Part shown: one piece after another, positions 14,945-23,460 of the stretch
How positions within the stretch are numbered: position 1 is the first letter of the stretch
Layout of the letters: the number at the start of each line of letters is the position of its first letter
Origin: Hyaloperonospora brassicae
Lineage: Eukaryota; Oomycota; Peronosporomycetes; Peronosporales; Peronosporaceae
Assembly (NCBI GenBank): GCA_947650285.1
Contig: CANTFL010001445.1
Location: 372,001-436,000 of the forward strand
DNA length: 64,000 nucleotides
Direction of reading: 5' to 3'
Notes under the pieces: generated by a model
The model's database searches: none
The model's input: the letters and a program-made list of their open reading frames with translations, nothing else
What the model was told of the DNA's origin: nothing
Position numbers and translations under genes: made by a program

Positions 14945-15301
14945 CCGTTTCGCGTACTCACTGCCGAGCAAGTCACCCTCGTCGAGCAGAGGACCTTTGT
15001 TGGTTGACACGTATGAGAGTGGCTCGAAGTCCTCATCTATTTCGTGGGCGTTGTGTCGCGGGGTCCAGAACGTCAGAGTTGCTGGACGATCAATATGAAC
15101 AGTGTCACGTTCGGTACCGTTGTCGTGCCGCACCGTTGCATGCTTTCGATGACTTACGAATGGGACATACTAGCGCGTCGCGGTCTCGCAGAGCAGTGAC
15201 GCGAATTTGGACAGCAGCTTCAACGTGAGTATGTAAGTGCGAGAAGAATCAAGCGAGTTAAGCGGTACGTCATTATTGCTGAGGAGGACGAGGACGAGGA
15301 G
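14945..15301 (+). pseudogene. 3' end of an unidentified host gene, cut by Gypsy-1
   Basis: One plus frame reads MNSVTFGTVVVPHRCML..TYEWDILARRGLAEQ (about 15096-15198), meets one TGA, and continues REFGQQLQREYVSARRIKR then VKRYVIIAEEDEDEE up to 15301. This is helical, basic-then-acidic and protein-like. Gypsy-1 is inserted in the acidic run. Rejoined after removing one target-site copy, the frame stops a few codons into the far flank (23287 onward). No family was recognised; the in-frame TGA suggests the gene was already dead or has an unseen intron. Confidence 0.4.
15297..15301. repeat. Target-site duplication of Gypsy-1, left copy
   Basis: AGGAG immediately precedes the 5' LTR and is repeated immediately after the 3' LTR at 23282-23286. 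A 5-bp duplication is usual for Gypsy integrases. Confidence 0.9.
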
Positions 15302-15691
15302 TGTAACGGGGCAGCCCGTTACATAATATTGTCACTTAAGGAAAGTGACAATAAAGAATATAAAGATGGATATTCTTTAAACAATATCACCGAAGCGGTG
15401 ATATTGAAGGGTCGACCAGAAGGGTCTGTTCATTGGTTGATATCGTGATGATATCAACCCACCAATCGCCGCAAGACGCGCGCAATGAGTGGTGACGAGA
15501 CGTCACCATACATGCAGTTATATTAGTATAATTGAATTAAGTCAAACGAAGAGACAGTAGTTTAAAGACTTAATTTATTAATATAACAGTTCTACTTTTA
15601 CCCTACCTACGCTTCCTCGCTCGCCACGTGTACGTCCGTCGGGGCACCCAAATCCCTTGCGTTAAGTTACGCAAGGGTGTGCCCCGTTACA
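15302..15691 (+). repeat. Gypsy-1 5' LTR (390 bp)
   Basis: Starts TGTAACGGGG and ends CCCCGTTACA, a 10-bp perfect terminal inverted repeat rather than only TG..CA. The first 22 bases also fold on themselves (9-bp arms 15302-15310 and 15315-15323). Further perfect hairpins are CAATATCACC..GGTGATATTG, GGTTGATATC..GATATCAACC and CCCTTGCGT..ACGCAAGGG. It matches 22892-23281 along its whole length. Confidence 0.97.
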
Positions 15692-15693
15692 CC

Positions 15694-15703
15694 TGGTAGC
15701 ACT
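15694..15703 (+). promoter_or_regulatory. Gypsy-1 primer binding site
   Basis: TGGTAGC begins two bases after the LTR and is complementary to a tRNA 3' end GCTACCA, as found in initiator methionine tRNAs. Gypsy-2 has the longer match TGGTAGCGC at the equivalent place (30061-30072, minus strand). Confidence 0.7.
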
Positions 15704-15735
15704 TTGTAGTCCTTCCAAGGACCACATCATCCAAC

Positions 15736-16890
15736 ATGAACATGTTGGATGAAGAAGACACCTTTCACGCCACGCGTGAAGGGTTTACCCATTTGAGTGA
15801 CATCGAATGGGGTGCGGTAGAACGAATGAGTTCTACCGTAGGCGAACTCGTCGTCAGCACCATGTTGGAGTCTCTAGACAGAGACCAACAACATGCTGCT
15901 ATCGCCAAGTTCATTCACAATGAACTTGCTCTCGAGAGGGAGAAAGTAGCCTTGCTTCACCAGCAAGGCTCTCAACAGGCCGAGCAGTTGAGAGAACTCG
16001 GTGCTCAACAGACGGAGCTGTTGAGACAGCAGCAATTCCATGCTGCTGTGGGCGGGACGGCGCATGCGCGTCGTCCCGAAGTGATGAAAGTCGACATCTC
16101 CAAGTACAGTGGAGTCCCGGAGGACTCCCTGTTACTATGGTTTGTCGAACTCGACAGAGCCCTAAGGGCTCGTCGCGTCGAAGATGAGCAAATGAAACTC
16201 ACATTTGCTCAGACCCACTTGGCAGGGCGTGCCAAAACTTGGTCCCTGGGACTCGAGAGTAGCGACCCAAATGTGTTTAGGTCGCTAGATGACTTCAAGT
16301 CCCGGCTCAGACAAACGTTTGAGCCGCCACGTGCTGAGTTCAGGGCTCGTTCAGAGCTCCTGAAACTCAAGCAGGGTAAGCGTGATGTGCACGCTTACGC
16401 ACAACATATACGACTCCTTGCGAGTAGTATAACTGCAAACCCAGTTCATGAACACACGTTGATTACGGTGTTCATGCAAGGGCTCGCAGAAGGGCCCGTC
16501 AGGAGCCACCTGTTCCGCCTTGAGCTGAATACGCTTGAAGAAGCGATATCAGCCGCGGAACAGGAAGACTTTAGCATGAGACAGGCTCATGCTAGCTCAA
16601 ACTCTTACCGTCCACCGAGACGACAAGAGATCGGAGGTCCAGAACCAATGGACCTCTGTTATGTTGAGAGCGAGAGACCTCGCTCAACAAGCAACAAGCG
16701 ATTGCAGAGGTGCAATCGCTGTCAGAAGTTAGGGCACTACGCATACGAGTGTAGTGCTCCGCGCCCAGTACCAAACAGTACTGAGCGAAATGGACGACCA
16801 TTCGCCAGAAAGGGCAATGGGCGTGGGTCCAGCGCTTTTGCGAAGCCGCAACAGCGAGACGGGCCATCAAAAAATGGTCGGGGTCAGTAG
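15736..16890 (+). CDS. gag: Gypsy-1 Gag (capsid/nucleocapsid), 384 residues
   Basis: Open frame from ATG 15736 to TAG 16888-16890. The N-terminal part is acidic and Gln-rich with a helical QQGSQQAEQLRELGAQQTEL segment. The capsid (Retrotrans_gag) core lies around residues 115-270: KVDISKYSGVPEDSLLLWF, TFAQTHLAGRAKTWSLGLE, FKSRLRQTFEPPRAEFRAR, LLKLKQGKRDVHAYAQHIR. A CCHC zinc knuckle CNRCQKLGHYAYEC lies at residues 326-339. Gag forms the particle that packages the element RNA. The stop codon lies inside a stem-loop just 3' of a slippery heptamer, so Pol is probably made as a Gag-Pol fusion. Confidence 0.93.
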   Translation: MNMLDEEDTFHATREGFTHLSDIEWGAVERMSSTVGELVVSTMLESLDRDQQHAAIAKFIHNELALEREKVALLHQQGSQQAEQLRELGAQQTELLRQQQFHAAVGGTAHARRPEVMKVDISKYSGVPEDSLLLWFVELDRALRARRVEDEQMKLTFAQTHLAGRAKTWSLGLESSDPNVFRSLDDFKSRLRQTFEPPRAEFRARSELLKLKQGKRDVHAYAQHIRLLASSITANPVHEHTLITVFMQGLAEGPVRSHLFRLELNTLEEAISAAEQEDFSMRQAHASSNSYRPPRRQEIGGPEPMDLCYVESERPRSTSNKRLQRCNRCQKLGHYAYECSAPRPVPNSTERNGRPFARKGNGRGSSAFAKPQQRDGPSKNGRGQ

Positions 16891-16909
16891 GGGCGGAGCG
16901 CCCTACTGA
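16869..16909 (+). promoter_or_regulatory. Gag-Pol -1 ribosomal frameshift signal
   Basis: A slippery heptamer A AAA AAT (16869-16875) is in the correct phase of gag (TCA AAA AAT). After an 8-nt spacer a stem-loop follows: arm 16884-16895 pairs with 16899-16909 (11 bp with one bulged G, 3-nt GAG loop) and contains the gag TAG. A -1 slip leads into the frame beginning TGG at 16875, which is open through the whole of pol. Heptamer plus spacer plus stem matches the classical retroviral signal. Because hairpins are everywhere in this element, the stem alone is weak evidence; the in-phase heptamer is the stronger part. Confidence 0.75.
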
Positions 16910-19900
16910 TCCAGCAACCTCAAGAGAATTTGCAAACCTCTTGACGAAAGTTGCTCCAGATACACAATCATTGTGTGTCTCTGCACCTGGTGATGATGTT
17001 TCGCTCATCACCTTGAAGTTGGAAGCGACAAATGACTTGTCGCTTCGTGCCCTAGTAGACTGTGGGGCGTCGAACAACTTTGTTCGTCGCCAGTCACTAG
17101 AGGGTCGTAGGCTCAAGTTCGTTGAGCGCGACATTCCCCTCACAAGGATGACGGTGCGCCTTGCAACAGGCGCATCGATAACCGTTGAGAAACGAGTAGT
17201 AGGAATCCACTACACGTTAGAGGGCGAGCAGTACGATGATGATTTCATCGTACTAGATCTGGATGACAAATTTGATGTCATCCTGGGATTACCTTGGCTC
17301 AGAAAATACGAGCCAAGGGTGAGCTGGCAGCATCGATCCGTGAAGATGCCTGCTGCTTGTTCATCAGATGGCCATCTGATGAACATCTTGGAGCGTCCAC
17401 AAGCGTGTGGATGTTCTGCGAGTGAGTGCGATGGCCTCACTTGCGGTACGGTCGTTAGCACGACTGCACAAGGTCACAGTGTAGTTGATCACTACACTGT
17501 GGAGCAAGCTCCCGGCGGCTGTACAGAAGTACAGGCTGCGCCGAAGGTCCACCACTCGAATAAGTCGAGTGGACCGGGACATGGATGCATGCCTAGCGGG
17601 CAGCATCTTAGAAGAAAGAAATCTGTTGCCCCCAAGGGGCAACATGAAAATCCTAGGTCGACTGGAGAGTCGACCGTAGAGGATCGGTTCCTGACTGTGG
17701 TTGCACAGCCACAGTCGGAAGACGTCGAGGGAATAAGTCCCCACGTACTTGAGGAAGGAGTTCCTCAAGAGTTGCTTGCTGAGGGATCAGGCCCTCAGCA
17801 ACCTGTGGAAGCAAGATCCCAGGAAGAAACCGAGACGTTGAACGTCTTGGTTAATGACGGATCAAGCGTAGGCGCTTATACGCTTGATCTGATTGTGCCT
17901 CCGAAGTTGACTTCGGAGATAACTCAGTTGCCAACGCTAGAACCGAAACGGTTCTTGCGTGATCTGCGTAGTGGCAAAGTCAAGCAGATCTGCGTACTCG
18001 TCACAGAGGACGAGTATATGACCGACATTCGGTCGGCAACAGTATTTGCTGAGAACGAACGGGTTCTCAGCAGCTCATCGATGGACGAAAGTGTCCTCGA
18101 TGAGAAGACTCGGATTGAGCGATACGCGTCCCAATCCTGGGAGTCACTTCAGGCAAATCCTTTGTATAAGGATTTGATCGAATTCAGGGATGTGTTCCCT
18201 GAATCCGTACCTTGCGAGTTGCCTAAGGACAAAGGCACTCGACACGAGATCGAGCTCAAACCGGGCTCGAAATACTGTGTCATGAAGCAGTGGCCACTGC
18301 CTCGTGAACAAGTGATAGCGATCGACAAGTTCTTTGCCGATCGCTTAGCAGCGGGCCATGTGAGGGAATCAACATCCCCTCACAGCTCTCCGACCTTCTG
18401 TGTGCGAAAGGCCACAGGAGGGTGGCGGATAGTGCACGCATTCAACAAGTTGAATGCTGCAACGGTACCGGCTCAGACGCCGATACCGAGGAAGGACGTA
18501 ATCATAGATGGTATGTCAAAGAGTACCATCTTTTCGTCCATGGATCTGATGGATGGATTCTATCAGATCCTGATGCGTGAACGGGACGTCCCGTTCACAG
18601 CAGTGAGTACCCCCAGCGGGATGCTGTGGGAGTGGCTAGTGATGCCACAGGGGCTGAGTAATGCCCCTGCAACATTCAACAGATGTGTAACAAATCTGTT
18701 GAGACCGGTGCGAGACTTCGCACCGAGTTACTTCGACGATGTGTTCGTCCATAGCCGGGCTATGGACGGGAAGACGGACGTTGAAGTTCACAGAACTCAC
18801 GTTCGTCAGGTTCTTCAACTTATGCGCAAGCATAAGTTGTACGCCAACCTCAAGAAGTGTATATTCGCGGCTAGCGAAATACCACTTCTTGGGTGCATCG
18901 TGGGGAAACACGGCGTACGCCCTGATCCCGAAAAGATCAAGGCGATCACCGACTGGCCAGTGCCAGTCGATGTCAAGGGACTTCGAAAGTTCCTTGGTCT
19001 TGCGGCGTACTTGCACAAGTACTCGCGCAACTACGCCGAGATGACGGTACATCTTTCTTGCTTGCTCAAGAAAAATGTCAAGTGGTCATGGAACGCTGAG
19101 TGCCAGCGTTCCTTTGAAGGTATCAAGCAAAGCTTGATGCAATCGCCGATCTTGGCGATTGCAGATCAGGACAGACCATTTCATGTGGTCTGTGACGCCA
19201 GCGATTTCGCAATCGGCTGTGCGTTAATGCAGTTCGATGCAGATGGCGCGGAGCGCGTCATCTGTTATCAATCGCGTCAGCTGCAAGCAGCTGAGCGTAA
19301 TTACCCAGTGCATGACAAGGAACTCCTTGCCATGAAATACGCACTGGCTAAATTTCGCGTCTATCTCTTGGGAGATAGACCGTTTGTAGTCTACACGGAC
19401 CATGCGTCATTACGCACGGCCGTAAACAGCCCACACCTCTCGCAAAGAATGGCGAGGTGGCTGTCTTTCTTCGCGGAGTATAACTTCTCCGTGGAGTATA
19501 AACCGGGACGACTCAATGTCGTCGCGGATGCTCTTTCGCGCCGGCCCGATTTCGAGCCGGACGCGCAATCCAACAGTGAGGACAAGCCCACTGTTGCGAC
19601 ACTGTCAGTCAGTGTCCCGTCGTCAAGTTTACTTGACGACGTACGAAAGGCATACGCGGAAGATAAGGATCTTCTGCGATTGATGGATCATCTGGTGAAT
19701 CCATCCAGTAAATCCATGAGGGATTTACCGGCTTTGTACCGATCCTCATCGGATCGGTATAGTACACGCAACGGATTGCTGTACTATACAGCTGTTGCCG
19801 ACGACACGCCTCGTGTCGTCGTACCCGCTCATCATGATTTGCGATTGCGCATCATGTATGAGTGTCACGATGCCCCAACAAGTGGCCATCGTGGTAAAGA

Positions 19901-20804
19901 AAAGACTTACCTCACGGTAAGTCGCGACTTTTACTGGCCCCGCCAGTATCAGTTTGTTCGCAAGTACATCCGTGCTTGCGAAGTATGTCAACGGGTGAAG
20001 CCTAGTCCTTCATCCCGTGCGCCATTGCAGCCTCTGCCTGTTCCGACAGAGTGCTGGCAGTCCGTTTCAATGGACTTCGTCTTCGGGTTTCCCGAAGACG
20101 CTCACAAGAATAATGGTATTCTTGTGTTTGTAGACCGATTCAGCAAGATGGTCCATCTTGCTGCTGTCCCTGAGTCAATCAAGGCTCAAGGTTGTGCTCG
20201 TGTCTTTCTAGACACGGTCTTTAGACTCCACGGGTTACCCCGTGAACTCGTATCCGACCGTGACCCTCGGTTCACGGCGGAATTTTGGCAAACCGTGTTC
20301 CGTACTCTCGGAACACGATTGAAGATGTCCACTTCTGACCATCCAGAAACAGATGGTCAGACGGAACGTGCGAACCGTGTCCTCGAAGAGATTCTTCGAG
20401 GATATGTCCACTCGTTTCCGAGTTGGAGCGAATTCCTACCCATGGTGGAATTCGCCATCAATAATTCGGTGCATGCTTCAACACAGCACACACCGTTTTA
20501 CGTGAATGGCCTACGCCATCCACGTGTGCCCACCCTTCTAGAGTGTGACTCTTGGATAAGGGGGGAGGGACTCGCTCGAGCAAAAACCGTTTTGGCTCTT
20601 GCTCATCACGTGTCGACGCAAACGTCGTCACGTATGATGCCGATGTCGATCAAGTCGACATCGATGAAGAAGATCATCTCAATAATAGCGAAGACGCTAT
20701 TATCGATTCGGATGATGATGACGATGCTGGTATATTCAGCATCGCCAACGATTATGCCAGCGAGGAAGAAGACAACCTCGCTGAAAAAGAGAGCAATCTC
20801 TTAG
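16875..20804 (+). CDS. pol: Gypsy-1 Pol: protease, RT, RNase H, integrase core
   Basis: Open in one frame from the frameshift site to TAA at 20802-20804, with no plausible ATG at the start. The retropepsin motif DCGAS is at 17058-17072. The RT has SSMDLMDGFYQI and the catalytic YFDD at 18729-18740. RNase H begins FHVVCDASDFAIGCAL (about 19173-19220). Integrase follows, with the HHCC zinc domain (H-x-..-GHRG, then ACEVCQ; about 19864-19993) and the DD(E) core: MDFVFGFP (from 20070), VSDRDPRF (about 20252) and QTERANRVLEE (about 20360). Protease before RT and RT before integrase marks Gypsy. After DSWIRGEG (about 20568) the frame reads nonsense-like Met/Ser/Lys-rich sequence; the true continuation is in the -1 frame. 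Confidence 0.93.
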   Translation, partial: WSGSVGAERPTDPATSREFANLLTKVAPDTQSLCVSAPGDDVSLITLKLEATNDLSLRALVDCGASNNFVRRQSLEGRRLKFVERDIPLTRMTVRLATGASITVEKRVVGIHYTLEGEQYDDDFIVLDLDDKFDVILGLPWLRKYEPRVSWQHRSVKMPAACSSDGHLMNILERPQACGCSASECDGLTCGTVVSTTAQGHSVVDHYTVEQAPGGCTEVQAAPKVHHSNKSSGPGHGCMPSGQHLRRKKSVAPKGQHENPRSTGESTVEDRFLTVVAQPQSEDVEGISPHVLEEGVPQELLAEGSGPQQPVEARSQEETETLNVLVNDGSSVGAYTLDLIVPPKLTSEITQLPTLEPKRFLRDLRSGKVKQICVLVTEDEYMTDIRSATVFAENERVLSSSSMDESVLDEKTRIERYASQSWESLQANPLYKDLIEFRDVFPESVPCELPKDKGTRHEIELKPGSKYCVMKQWPLPREQVIAIDKFFADRLAAGHVRESTSPHSSPTFCVRKATGGWRIVHAFNKLNAATVPAQTPIPRKDVIIDGMSKSTIFSSMDLMDGFYQILMRERDVPFTAVSTPSGMLWEWLVMPQGLSNAPATFNRCVTNLLRPVRDFAPSYFDDVFVHSRAMDGKTDVEVHRTHVRQVLQLMRKHKLYANLKKCIFAASEIPLLGCIVGKHGVRPDPEKIKAITDWPVPVDVKGLRKFLGLAAYLHKYSRNYAEMTVHLSCLLKKNVKWSWNAECQRSFEGIKQSLMQSPILAIADQDRPFHVVCDASDFAIGCALMQFDADGAERVICYQSRQLQAAERNYPVHDKELLAMKYALAKFRVYLLGDRPFVVYTDHASLRTAVNSPHLSQRMARWLSFFAEYNFSVEYKPGRLNVVADALSRRPDFEPDAQSNSEDKPTVATLSVSVPSSSLLDDVRKAYAEDKDLLRLMDHLVNPSSKSMRDLPALYRSSSDRYSTRNGLLYYTAVADDTPRVVVPAHHDLRLRIMYECHDAPTSGHRGKEKTYLTVSRDFYWPRQYQFVRKYIRACEVCQRVKPSPSSRAPLQPLPVPTECWQSVSMDFVFGFPEDAHKNNGILVFVDRFSKMVHLAAVPESIKAQGCARVFLDTVFRLHGLPRELVSDRDPRFTAEFWQTVFRTLGTRLKMSTSDHPETDGQTERANRVLEEILRGYVHSFPSWSEFLPMVEFAINNSVHASTQHTPFYVNGLRHPRVPTLLECDSWIRGEGLARAKTVLALAHHVSTQTSSRMMPMSIKSTSMKKIISIIAKTLLSIRMMMTMLVYSASPTIMPARKKTTSLKKRAIS

Positions 20805-21784
20805 CAGTGCGCACGCAGCGCACTGCTAAACAAAACAAAGAGTCAGCAGAGAACTTCCTGCTGACTCGAGAAGCGGTAGTCCGTTTCGTTCAGGACTCCA
20901 TCGCAAATGCGGTGGACCGTCAGAAACGGAACGCAGACAAGAATGGAAGAGCAAATGTTCTTTCATTTAAGGTTAATGACCTAGTACTACTGTCTACGGT
21001 AAACCTACCTGGACATGCAGTCACTAGTGTCGGCAGTAGTAAACTACTGCCGAAATACATTGGGCCATTTCGAGTGTTGCATCGCAAGGGCAATGCATAC
21101 ACACTCGAATTGCCACGTAAGATGCGCACGCATCCTACGTTTTACGTGGGGAGGCTTAGGTCGTACTGTCAGTACGGGCCTTCTTCTTCCGATGAAGATA
21201 GCCCCCACGTTCAAGAACATCCATCAAGTTCTTGCGTTCGCGCTCCAGACGATCCGTCTGGTCGCGCAGATATGATACCTCGGTATTCAACCGAGTTATC
21301 TCTCCGCGAGCTGTCGCCAGCTCGCCGAAAAGGGAGCGGACATCCCGCTCGACCTGAAGCTGCGCCGTGGCATAATCGGCGCGATCCCTCGCCCGATCAG
21401 CCTCGTGATCCTTGCGGTTCTTCCGCACGGTGTCGGTCAAAGCATAGCGTCGGTCGCGCTCGTGCTTCAAGTCATCGCGCAATTCATCGATTGCGCGATC
21501 CATCTCGTAAGGGTCGAGATGGTGGGCCTGGGGTTCTGGAGGAGGTCTTTCCTCCTCCACCACATCCTTTGGTGGATGCTCACGGTGATCAACGCTTTCT
21601 AGTGGAGCGTATCTTGAATCACCGTGACGATTCAGGATCAAGGACGAGCTACCTCGTCCAGTGGCGGGGGTATCCACCCTCTTGGAACAGCTGGGAGCCC
21701 CGCTCTCAGCTGTTGATGGATGTTGAAGGTCTCGTCCACCAATATGACGAGACCCATCCGATGAGTCCTGTGGCCCATCGGTAA
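20552..21784 (+). CDS. Gypsy-1 Pol C-terminus: acidic linker, integrase GPF module, chromodomain
   Basis: This frame overlaps the end of the main pol frame and continues it by a -1 shift at the G6 run 20560-20565. It first encodes an acidic tract (about residues 25-75, rich in Asp and Glu), then the [23 protein letters not shown] segment and the GPF module [21 protein letters not shown] typical of Gypsy integrase C-termini. After a basic Pro/Arg/Ser-rich stretch comes a chromodomain (about residues 343-400): [32 protein letters not shown]. Chromodomains of chromoviruses steer integration to modified chromatin. A one-base deletion in an ancestral G7 would explain the shift; a functional slip is possible. 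It overlaps an antisense ORF. Confidence 0.88.
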
Positions 21785-22760
21785 ACACGCGCCCTAGGCG
21801 CTTGTAGACGGATTGCAAGTTTGCAATCGCGTCACGCATCTCCTCCGAGAGATGTGCCCTTCCCCAGGGCGAACTTAGGGAGTACACATCCCTATGTGCA
21901 CGCTGCGAGTTGTCAACACAACTCGCACAAGGGTCTCCCCATGTGAGGCAAGGAATGCCTGCCTCACTCGATAAACAATGCAACCGGTACCTAGCACCGG
22001 TTGGCGTTCGCCGTTCGAACCTGAGGCGTGTTGCCTCAAGTTTCTTGAGCCACCCCTCTCGTCCAAAATTCTTGACGTTTTGGACGAACGCGTTCCACGC
22101 AGCCAAAAGCGATGTTTTGTCACGCTTTTGGTTGCTATTGTACCATCGATGTCTAAGGAAGACATCGAGATAAAAGTCTTCTTCAGCGCGAAAGTTCTTC
22201 GCGCTGGGACTCAAGCCGTGAAGCTCGGTTGCATCGAATAAGGGTATTCGATGGTGTTGGCCTGTCTCGTGAGACAGGCTATTGATGAGCCGTTCGGGCA
22301 AACGCCACGGCTTCAGCTCATCACGCTTCACAGTGGTACCTTTGTTGGTACCACGGCTGTCGGTATGACGATGGGTTGCACCATCGTCAAGTCGCTCGTG
22401 CGAAGGAGCACGAGCTGATTGCGGTGATGTGCAAACATACTCATCATCAGATTCGTCATCACTGCCGAACAGACTGTGTTGCAACTCACGAGTCCGTTCG
22501 TTCGGCAGTGGCCTTGGCGAATACTGAGGCGTCGCCGGTGAGCGAGACGCCTCTGGAGCATTGCCCGAGTCAGACACGTCTGACTCGCCAGAGTAGATGA
22601 CCTCCACATCGGGGTCATCGTACGCACGCGGCGTGATACCGCGTGCACCTGCAGCACCTGTTGCTGCAGGCGAAGAAAGGGCGGCAGACGACGAAGCGTC
22701 TGCCGCAGAGGCTTGCACAGCACCAGGCTGTGTGGGTCTTGAGTCACCTCGCATAGACAT
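21156..22760 (-). CDS. Gypsy-1 antisense ORF, 534 residues, coiled-coil C-terminus
   Basis: An uninterrupted ATG-to-stop frame on the minus strand covers all of the sense non-coding 3' region (21785-22760) and runs antisense through the chromodomain and basic linker. The N-terminal 150 residues are Ala/Ser/Asp-rich and probably disordered. A folded-looking middle has [51 protein letters not shown]. Its Cys cluster (C-x8-C-x6-C-x2-C, in [14 protein letters not shown]) could bind zinc. The last 110 residues are strongly charged and heptad-like ([20 protein letters not shown] to [16 protein letters not shown]). Function unknown. Gypsy-2 has a decayed ORF in the same place and orientation, which supports a real gene. 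Sense-strand self-complementarity could also favour such ORFs. Confidence 0.65.
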
Positions 22761-22878
22761 GTTAGCTATGCGAGGTCAAGCGGAAAGTGAGTGGAACGGA
22801 CCAAACAAGTACTCCCTGTCCCAATGGTGGCCAACGGGTGGCCTCCATATTTCGATAGTCACACGGTGACTATCAGTT

Positions 22879-22891
22879 AAGGGGGGGGTGA
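22879..22891 (+). promoter_or_regulatory. Gypsy-1 polypurine tract
   Basis: AAGGGGGGGGTGA lies directly before the 3' LTR and has the position and composition of a plus-strand priming tract. Confidence 0.8.
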
Positions 22892-23281
22892 TGTAACGGG
22901 GCAGCCCGTTACATAATATTGTCACTTAAGGAAAGTGACAATAAAGAATATAAAGATGGATATTCTTTAAACAATATCACCGAAGCGGTGATATTGAAGG
23001 GTCGACCAGAAGGGTCTGTTCATTGGTTGATATCGTGATGATATCAACCCACCAATCGCCGCAAGACGCGCGCAATGAGTGGTGACGAGACGTCACCATA
23101 CATGCAGTTATATTAGTATAATTGAATTAAGTCAAACGAAGAGACAGTAGTTTAAAGACTTAATTTATTAATATAACAGTTCTACTTTTACCCTACCTAC
23201 GCTTCCTCGCTCGCCACGTGTACGTCCGTCGGGGCACCCAAATCCCTTGCGTTAAGTTACGCAAGGGTGTGCCCCGTTACA
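22892..23281 (+). repeat. Gypsy-1 3' LTR (390 bp)
   Basis: Same length and, by eye, same sequence as 15302-15691, with the same TGTAACGGGG and CCCCGTTACA ends. AGGAG follows at 23282-23286. Confidence 0.97.
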
Positions 23282-23460
23282 AGGAGCATTTTTCGCTGAG
23301 CTTGTAAAGTCTGATGGTCAGGCAACCGAAAGTGTATATGGGTCGTAAGATCCCAAAGGACGTCGGTCAACTTCATCCGGAGTCGATTGCGCTTCTCTGT
23401 AATTTTCAGGTACGTCGCTACTACAATCTCATTGAGGTCGACAGATGTGCGGGCTCGAAT
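23282..23460 (+). other. Host DNA between the two Gypsy insertions
   Basis: 179 bp of unique sequence, beginning with the right target copy AGGAG of Gypsy-1 (23282-23286) and ending with the left target copy CGAAT of Gypsy-2 (23456-23460). It continues from 15301 and into 30605 in the pre-insertion locus. A plus frame (23314 onward) reads MVRQPKVYMGRKIPKDVGQLHP but runs into the LTR and is not recognised. Confidence 0.7.

What the first reader, a model, noticed from the sequence alone, without database searches (positions are those of the whole stretch)
15302..23281. A whole LTR retrotransposon built as a chain of short perfect hairpins
From the first LTR base to the last, Gypsy-1 is filled with adjacent inverted repeats: arms of 7-14 bp, mostly 2-12 nt loops, about one every 25-35 nt, in LTRs, gag, pol and the 3' region alike. 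Examples: 15727-15738/15741-15752 (12 bp); 15906-15915/15919-15928; 17022-17031/17037-17046; 17230-17239/17245-17254; a 28-bp perfect palindrome at 17358-17385; 17475-17485/17491-17501; 17776-17785/17792-17801; 17860-17870/17879-17889; 18047-18056/18063-18072. In gag alone I count about 12 perfect stems of at least 8 bp. A rough chance estimate (about 11 loop choices x 4^-8 per position) gives about 0.2 per kb. Stems run through conserved protein motifs, so synonymous positions appear tuned to pair with the neighbouring arm. Possible causes are selection for an ordered genomic RNA (as in some RNA viruses), protection from or engagement with small-RNA silencing, or a mutational process such as RT template switching that perfects near-palindromes. 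I know of no LTR element described this way.
Basis: partly seen in the sequence, partly recalled or inferred. Interest (0 to 1): 0.95.

Follow-up and report, generated by a model that had tools for sequence, protein, structure and literature searches.

The report
Retrotransposon tuned into perfect hairpins
A family of mobile elements in what looks like a water-mould genome has its sequence, genes included, tuned so that neighbouring stretches pair into many short perfect hairpins on either strand, and evolution keeps that pairing, which points to an undescribed kind of whole-element structure.

Summary
All nine quoted stems are exact. The element (15302-23281) holds 113 perfect stems of at least 8 bp (loops 0-15), against about 0.4/kb elsewhere; codon-preserving shuffles give 0.5 (gag) and 1.3 (pol) against 13 and 51. 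It is a young Ty3/Gypsy chromodomain element in an oomycete-like genome. Selection keeps the pairing: inherited variants avoid arms (12 of 133, 37 expected) while single-copy variants do not (39 of 157, 43 expected); a sublineage 9-24% diverged has 39 compensatory double changes (6 expected) and keeps 62 of 127 stems (29 expected). Pairing is strand-symmetric: G-U and A-C defects are equally common and both strands fold about 47% better than shuffles. That argues against selection on the sense RNA alone; template switching alone fits poorly too. Three sister families have arrays of their own size (4-5 bp arms in one, 7-9 in two) at other positions; the Copia, LINE-like, distant Gypsy and foreign Gypsy pieces examined do not. 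Best reading, partly inferred: single strands of both polarities are kept self-folded, most likely blunting sense-antisense annealing and RNA silencing; folding of single-stranded cDNA is the main rival. No RNA or probing data were available.

The parts
15297..15301 (.). target-site duplication AGGAG, left copy (right copy 23282-23286)
   Evidence: read directly
15302..15691 (+). 5' LTR, 390 bp, identical to the 3' LTR; 7 perfect stems >=8 bp; the first stem begins at the first LTR base
15694..15706 (+). likely primer-binding site (begins TGG; rule recalled); no stem >=8 is centred in the leader 15692-15735
   Evidence: motif rule recalled
15736..16890 (+). gag ORF (capsid domain; CCHC knuckle below its Pfam cut-off); 13 stems >=8 bp against 0.49 in codon shuffles
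16941..20804 (+). pol ORF: protease, RT, RNase H, integrase; 51 stems >=8 bp in 16941-20549 against 1.26 in codon shuffles
20552..21784 (+). overlapping ORF in another frame with SH3_Tf2-1 and chromodomain
17358..17385 (.). 28-bp perfect palindrome, the longest arm (14 bp, loop 0)
16572..16594 (.). hairpin kept in the L031 sublineage through two compensated pairs
22146..22168 (.). hairpin in the 3' part kept through two compensated pairs
17022..17046 (.). hairpin near the start of pol kept through one compensated pair
15815..15838 (.). hairpin whose 6-nt loop is exactly inverted in copy L026
22681..22706 (.). hairpin whose 6-nt loop is exactly inverted in copy L025
21785..22891 (+). 3' part between chromodomain ORF and 3' LTR, 18 stems >=8 per kb
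22879..22888 (+). likely polypurine tract before the 3' LTR (rule recalled)
   Evidence: read
22892..23281 (+). 3' LTR, 390 bp, 7 stems >=8 bp

Best explanation
A subclade of Ty3/Gypsy elements in this genome carries arrays of short local Watson-Crick hairpins along its sequence, kept by selection in the window's family. Each family has its own positions and its own hairpin size: about 24 nt per unit with mostly 8-11 bp arms here, 11-16 nt with 4-5 bp arms in family B, roughly 18-25 nt in families C and D. Shown: far above codon-preserving chance; maintenance by purifying selection and compensatory double changes in the window's family; strand symmetry; presence in related families and absence from the other retroelements examined. 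Inferred: what is selected is that single-stranded intermediates of both polarities (sense RNA plus antisense RNA or minus-strand cDNA) stay folded on themselves. Inferred and least certain: the main benefit is that sense and antisense strands anneal poorly and that small RNAs cut from, or aimed at, a unit are themselves self-paired, which would blunt RNA silencing, while arms stay too short to be good Dicer substrates.
For: Codon shuffles. The codon register that pairs position 3 with 3 and 1 with 2, where fewest pairs can be made by synonymous change, is used by only 10 of 64 stems. Variants of 20 copies polarised by L031: derived in 2-19 copies, 12 of 133 in arms with 36.6 expected, p 3e-7; derived in one copy, 39 of 157 with 43.2 expected. 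L031 sublineage against a neutral null that allows for choosing stems in one sequence (300 runs): stems kept 62 of 127, null 28.8, max 43; one-sided changes 109, null 190, min 158; compensated pairs 39, null 6.3, max 15; the reverse direction agrees (67 of 119 kept, null 28.3; 94 one-sided, null 175; 22 compensated, null 5.6). Sliding partners by 1-6 bases gives 4-10 instead of 39. Strand symmetry: helices with one G-U 47, with one A-C 54; interior mismatches G-T 8, A-C 11 of 30; folding gain over dinucleotide shuffles 47.2% sense, 47.4% antisense in 21 fragments. Sister families: B 39 five-bp arms vs 11.7 in L036, compensated pairs 6 vs 0-3 slid; C 14 stems of 7-9 bp vs 0.8 in L061, 12 of >=8 vs 0.9 in L081; D 11 vs about 1 in L064 and in L065. 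Not in 10 Copia pieces, 7 LINE-like and 2 distant Gypsy pieces of the same genome nor in 14 Gypsy pieces of other organisms. Silencing context: in Phytophthora infestans small RNAs of 21, 25/26 and 32 nt exist, and small RNAs map along two whole Gypsy elements in both orientations (PMC3522703, passages).
Against: No RNA, small-RNA or structure-probing data were available; the silencing step rests on analogy and on unit length. About half of the element lies outside hairpins and could still yield ordinary small RNAs, and in P. infestans small RNAs do cover Gypsy elements throughout (whether those elements have hairpins was not tested). Families C and D show no clear covariation with each other (11 vs 4-8 and 5 vs 1-6), so maintenance is shown for the window's family only and is suggestive for B. 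Loops in LTR and gag-pol are A-rich on the plus strand (A 0.31, T 0.24 overall; not in the 3' part), and 46 of 93 hairpins are more stable on the sense strand against 29 on the antisense: hints of a sense-strand component. Only one well-diverged sublineage was available for covariation.
Confidence: 0.45

Rival explanations
1. DNA-level version: what is selected is folding of single-stranded cDNA (minus strand, or plus strand) during reverse transcription, for compaction in the particle or protection from single-strand nucleases or deaminases.
For: Watson-Crick pairing with G-U no better than A-C; stem ends with a random first mismatch, G-T 17 and A-C 18 of 104; in family B loops of 3 and 4 nt are the most enriched for 5-bp arms, 56 and 45 vs 9.0 and 7.0 (related copies pooled), which suits DNA hairpins (recalled).
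Against: Does not explain why only this subclade needs it, since LTR elements in general pass through the same intermediates; hairpins in the RNA template should hinder reverse transcription.
Confidence: 0.25
2. Sense-strand genomic RNA structure alone (packaging, translation control, stability), as in genome-scale ordered RNA structure of RNA viruses.
For: Very large folding gain throughout, in coding and non-coding parts; A-rich loops in LTR and gag-pol; 46 hairpins more stable on sense, 29 on antisense, 18 equal, of 93.
Against: Antisense gains equally; G-U no commoner than A-C in helices, at stem ends or among broken pairs.
Confidence: 0.12
3. A mutational process alone: template switching by the element's reverse transcriptase (or host polymerase) perfects near-palindromes, with no benefit.
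For: Would give perfect Watson-Crick arms, strand symmetry and family-specific geometry for free. Two exact inversions of 6-nt loops, in copies L025 and L026, among 134 changed loops with two or more changes (displaced control windows 0, 1, 0, 0, 0) are the kind of footprint described for template switching (PMC8794818, abstract and discussion read).
Against: Copying between arms that is unbiased in direction would spread a mutation as often as erase it, so inherited variants should hit arms as often as other sites; they do not (12 of 133, 36.6 expected), though single-copy variants do. Correction strongly biased towards reversion is not excluded. Of 96 broken stems in the L031 comparison 40 differ by one base in one arm and none shows four or more changes in one arm with none in the other. 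One-sided changes (109) outnumber compensated ones (39).
Confidence: 0.12
4. Chance, composition, codon usage or assembly artefact.
For: None found.
Against: Codon-preserving and dinucleotide shuffles, rarity outside the element and in the other retroelements examined from the same assembly, presence in the 19 full copies examined and compensatory changes.
Confidence: 0.01

Closest known systems
[quoted passage not shown]
   Same: Raised folding energy along the whole genome through many consecutive stem-loops; which bases pair is not shared between related families (PMC7642675 passages).
   Different: LTR retrotransposon, not an RNA virus; mean gain 47% against 7.5-10.7% for HCV, about 15% for SARS-CoV-2 and 23.4% as the highest vertebrate RNA virus value named in PMC7642675 of 2020 (own script and shuffles here, so a rough comparison; single regions of viruses there exceed 50%); perfect Watson-Crick arms with family-specific size; strand-symmetric; stems conserved inside the family.
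Ty3 and Ty1 genomic RNA structure
   Same: LTR retroelement RNA with local structured regions.
   Different: SHAPE work describes a mosaic with stable regions up to 30% of the RNA interspersed with dynamic ones (PMC11381356, abstract and one results section); no array of perfect hairpins is mentioned in those parts.
Template-switch-made hairpins in RNA genes
   Same: Perfect stems, compensatory changes, occasional loop inversion.
   Different: Described for RNA genes (PMC8794818, abstract and discussion); here over a hundred stems per element, inherited variants avoiding arms and no large one-arm replacements.
Chromovirus-type Ty3/Gypsy elements
   Same: gag, protease, RT, RNase H, integrase, chromodomain, LTRs.
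   Different: The hairpin array; the 14 Gypsy pieces from other organisms and 2 distant Gypsy pieces of this genome that were examined lack it.

Membership tests
Ty3/Gypsy chromovirus | gag and pol with order protease, RT, RNase H, integrase, then chromodomain | tested here: met
   (Retrotrans_gag, RVP_2, RVT_1, RT_RNaseH, Integrase_H2C2, rve, Chromo, all above cut-off); the chromodomain ORF is in another frame
Ty3/Gypsy chromovirus | near-identical LTRs and a short target duplication | tested here: met
   390-bp LTRs identical, AGGAG on both sides
GORS | raised folding energy over the whole genome | tested here: met
   21 of 21 fragments 25-60% on the sense strand
GORS | pairing positions not shared between relatives | tested here: inconclusive
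   not shared between families but conserved inside the family
GORS | property of the genomic (sense) RNA strand, wobble pairs tolerated (my criterion, not taken from a paper) | tested here: not met
   strand-symmetric, G-U equals A-C
GORS | persistent positive-strand RNA virus, structure seen by probing | not testable with these tools
   no probing or infection data
Template-switch mutation as sole origin | multi-base replacement of one arm by the complement of the other | tested here: not met
   0 of 96 broken stems with 4 or more changes in one arm and none in the other
Template-switch mutation as sole origin | loop inversion footprints | tested here: met
   2 exact 6-nt inversions among 134 multi-change loops; displaced control windows gave 0, 1, 0, 0, 0
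Template-switch mutation as sole origin | arm variants inherited as freely as other variants | tested here: not met
   12 of 133 inherited variants in arms, 36.6 expected; 39 of 157 single-copy variants, 43.2 expected
Known structured RNA families | match to an Rfam model | tested here: not met
   0 matches at gathering scores in 15302-23281

The most novel reading that the evidence does not exclude
A lineage of LTR retrotransposons has evolved a whole-element, both-strand hairpin code: protein-coding and regulatory sequence is written so that sense and complementary strands both collapse into hairpins of a family-specific unit size, an armour against annealing and small-RNA silencing (or a cDNA-folding device), evolved separately at different positions in at least four families. 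I know of no described system that constrains both strands of a protein-coding genome in this way.
Probability: 0.4. Interest if true: 0.97.

Novelty: new variant of a known kind. Interest (0 to 1): 0.9.

Why it matters
Selection on whole-genome structure has been discussed for RNA viruses; here it appears in LTR retrotransposons, at about twice the strength, and on both strands. Four families with different hairpin sizes beside hairpin-free retroelements in one genome are a natural experiment: small-RNA maps and structure probing of the same strain would test directly whether nucleic-acid folding is a defence of a transposon against its host, or a need of reverse transcription. It also shows that synonymous sites of transposon genes are not neutral here, which affects dating and dN/dS work on such elements.

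Tried and rejected
Rejected: chance and codon usage; long-range structure (excess only at loops up to about 60 nt); one-sided RNA folding as sole target; pure template switching; a protein-coding role of the minus-strand ORF 21156-22760 (no Pfam family above its cut-off; codon-position divergence 0.116, 0.190, 0.185 against L031, so no third-position excess, and the longest minus frame there is 222 codons); a constrained unit length as such (unit SD 2.98 vs 3.82 permuted, but chance pairing at the inner edge shortens the loop by two per added pair, so I do not lean on it); shared hairpin positions between families.

A comparison I do not count as evidence: third codon positions in window arms changed at 68 of 473 sites, outside at 309 of 1000, and family-B arms at 5.7% against 12.6%. 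Choosing stems in one sequence hides that lineage's own stem-breaking changes, so about half the outside rate is expected without any constraint. The same caution holds for the first polymorphism count with stems chosen in the window copy (shared 6 of 119, 30.9 expected; private 41 of 239, 62.1 expected; window-only 0 of 12, 3.1 expected). I therefore repeated both with nulls that allow for it, and the report rests on those.

Weak or small: the post-insertion control (LTR against LTR within copies) has 5 of 12 differences in arms with 4.1 expected. A mild protein cost: codons fully in arms match family-B relative L036 at 100 of 163, free codons at 276 of 411, partly paired codons at 49 of 92.

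Dropped before counts: L024 (only 1352 aligned bases) left out of 20 fetched copies, so 19 plus the window copy used; L096 (match of 300 bases) left out of 15 foreign loci, so 14 used; stems touching alignment gaps left out of the kept counts. In one search two compensated pairs lie in LTR-end stretches that align poorly (window 15654-15677 and 23244-23267). The five family-B pieces are 88-98% alike and not independent. The L081 frame used for codon shuffles holds 6 stop codons, so that shuffle is approximate. Print: ten library searches (open-access PMC only) listed no paper that I recognised, from titles and starts of abstracts, as describing such an element; most subscription papers were not searchable.


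Full report
What it is. 15302-23281 is one young copy of a Ty3/Gypsy element with a chromodomain: two identical 390-bp LTRs, AGGAG on both sides, a gag ORF (15736-16890), a pol ORF (16941-20804) with protease, RT, RNase H and integrase, and an overlapping ORF with SH3_Tf2-1 and chromodomain domains (20552-21784). The window lies in a 100.6-Mb, 898-contig genome. 29 elicitin-domain matches point to an oomycete; that elicitins are an oomycete family is recalled, and no species name was available. 36 listed places match the pol ORF at 99-100% (a capped list and so a lower bound).

The observation. All nine quoted stems are exact. Stems with arms >=8 and loops 0-12 number 111 in the nine bins covering the element against 24 in the other 55 bins. 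Arm lengths do not fall off as chance would: without the 3' LTR and with loops 0-15 there are 30, 35, 35, 23, 10, 2, 0 and 1 stems with arms of 7 to 14 bp. Codon-preserving shuffles of gag and pol reach at most 3 and 5 stems >=8, against 13 and 51. The excess is local: for arms >=8, 106 vs 1.7 at loops 0-15, about 5-fold at 16-30 and 3-fold at 31-60, and at most about 1.5-fold in any longer bin. Each region has it except the short leader. Of ten conserved pol motifs looked at, five (for example DGFYQI and GQTERANR) overlap a stem of arm >=7 and five (for example YFDD and YTDH) do not, as expected if protein constraint limits but does not forbid it.

It is maintained. In 19 full copies the stems persist (113-119 stems >=8 per copy). 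Of 20 pieces of about 2 kb chosen from an RNase H domain search, 15 belong to the same family (88.8-99.4% identical DNA) and hold 14-26 stems >=8 each. Variants among the 20 copies were polarised with L031 as outgroup and arms read from the copies with the ancestral allele: of variants derived in 2-19 copies, hence inherited, 12 of 133 lie in arms (36.6 expected); of variants derived in a single copy 39 of 157 do (43.2 expected). So mutations strike arms freely but are seldom passed on. A first count with stems chosen in the window copy agrees (6 of 119, 30.9 expected) but is biased by that choice. The element around L031 (contig C458) is 8.7% (RT) to 24% (LTR, gag) diverged. Against a neutral null that allows for choosing stems in one sequence, 62 of 127 window stems (arm >=7) are still perfect there (null 28.8, at most 43 in 300 runs), one-sided changes are 109 (null 190, at least 158) and compensated pairs 39 (null 6.3, at most 15); with stems chosen in L031 the numbers are 67 of 119 (28.3), 94 (175) and 22 (5.6). 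Sliding the partner by 1 to 6 bases either way gives 4-10 instead of 39. Examples are 16572-16594 and 22146-22168, each with two compensated pairs. One-sided changes remain commoner than compensated ones, so each stem is under moderate rather than absolute constraint.

It is strand-symmetric. If folding of the sense RNA alone were selected, G-U pairs should be common and A-C rare. Helices of >=8 with exactly one G-U number 47, with exactly one A-C 54. Interior mismatches are G-T 8 and A-C 11 of 30; the first mismatch outside a stem is G-T 17 and A-C 18 of 104, the random share. Broken pairs in the L031 element are G-U 18 and A-C 32 of 89; in the reverse direction 17 and 16 of 60. Six 600-nt pol windows fold to -266 to -294 kcal/mol sense (codon-shuffle means -180 to -207) and -267 to -292 antisense (-183 to -198). 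Against dinucleotide shuffles the mean gain is 47.2% sense and 47.4% antisense in 21 fragments of 350 nt, 42.5% in 5 fragments of L031; 15 fragments from the rest of the window have 2.1%, 20 Copia fragments -1.1%, 12 fragments of window 24-36 kb 6.7%. PMC7642675 (passages, one from the abstract) gives 7.5-10.7% for HCV, about 15% for SARS-CoV-2 and 23.4% as the highest for a vertebrate RNA virus. Small sense-side hints exist: loops are A-rich in LTR and gag-pol but not in the 3' part, and 46 of 93 hairpins are more stable on the sense strand against 29.

It is a trait of a subclade, with different designs. Three other families with RT regions about 59-64% identical in protein to the window's (less for damaged pieces) have arrays too. 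Family B (L033, L035, L036, L045, L048, L066, L067, L070) has 4-5 bp arms with loops 3-6: in L036 39 arms of 5 bp vs 11.7 in codon shuffles and no excess at 7 or more; loops of 3, 4, 5 and 6 nt hold 56, 45, 23 and 16 of the pooled 5-bp stems against 9.0, 7.0, 6.6 and 6.3 (related copies pooled); 6-bp arms occur there with loops 0-2 (14 vs 1.4 in L066); compensated pairs between L036 and L045 are 6 against 0-3 slid, suggestive of maintenance; the folding gain is 12-19% on both strands. Family C (L061, L081) has 14 stems of 7-9 bp vs 0.8 in 2 kb of pol, and 12 stems >=8 vs 0.9 upstream. Family D (L064, L065, 98% alike) has 11 vs about 1 in each. Hairpin centres are not shared between families beyond chance, except weakly C with D, 3 of 16, p 0.04 as the best of six tests, and C against D shows no clear covariation. 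Controls: 10 Copia pieces hold 0-2 stems >=8; 7 LINE-like pieces hold 0-1 and 2 distant Gypsy pieces none (the label LINE-like is mine, from the RT family search); 14 Gypsy pieces found in metagenome bins of other organisms hold 0-1. The folding gain alone is less telling: C has 12.6-12.9%, D 3.8-7.2%, while one LINE-like piece, L075, reaches 10.3% and foreign Gypsy pieces -4.5 to 9.2%.

Mechanism. Shown: selection on pairing in the window's family, both strands, family-specific size. Not shown: which molecule. Pure template switching (PMC8794818: abstract and discussion read) predicts that a change in one arm is spread as often as erased and that one arm is replaced in blocks; neither is seen, though correction biased towards reversion is not excluded. 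It does leave traces: two copies carry an exactly inverted 6-nt loop, so arms do meet in the replication cycle. I take as most likely that single strands of both polarities are kept folded on themselves, and that the benefit is poor annealing of sense with antisense and poor small-RNA production or action. In Phytophthora infestans small RNAs of 21, 25/26 and 32 nt exist and small RNAs cover two Gypsy elements in both orientations (PMC3522703, passages); PMC4791657 (passages) names two main classes of 21 and 25 nt; PMC3950689 (passages) says the evidence that structured viral genomes escape siRNA control is not entirely consistent. The median unit here is 24 nt. Folding of the single-stranded cDNA is the strongest rival. 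I give about 0.9 to selection on pairing, about 0.45 to the both-polarity reading as stated, of which about 0.3 to silencing as the benefit.

Comparison. It works like genome-scale ordered RNA structure but fails the sense-strand test, and yeast LTR elements studied by SHAPE show a mosaic instead (PMC11381356, abstract and one section). No Rfam family matches. I rate it a new variant of a known kind, conservatively; the categorical reading is in the section on the most novel reading.

Noticed in passing
window 20552-20804: In this copy and in many young copies listed the pol frame is 1339 codons while the SH3/chromodomain part lies in another frame; some other copies show longer open pol frames (1605 or 1666 codons). 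Either a frame difference between subfamilies or a recoding site.
   Followed up: no
window 21156-22760, minus strand: An open frame of 534 codons runs antisense through the 3' part. No Pfam family reaches its cut-off and no third-position excess of changes is seen, so it may be a by-product of strand-symmetric sequence.
   Followed up: partly
L025 at window 22681-22706; L026 at window 15815-15838: Exactly inverted 6-nt hairpin loops in single copies, a footprint of strand switching or inversion at hairpins.
   Followed up: partly
L033, L035, L036, L045, L048, L066, L067, L070: A sister Gypsy family whose pol carries many mini-hairpins of 4-5 bp arms and 3-6 nt loops, with no excess of longer arms.
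   Followed up: partly
L061 (family C): 16 of 18 left arms begin with G and so right arms end with C, but only 9 of 20 in L081; perhaps a codon-register effect of codon usage.
   Followed up: no
window 15302-15323: The LTR starts with a perfect hairpin TGTAACGGG ... CCCGTTACA, so the integrase end sequence lies inside a stem.
   Followed up: no
L020, L025, L026: Copies 1.7-1.9% diverged from the window copy but with only 0-4 LTR-LTR differences, so several sublineages have been active recently.
   Followed up: no
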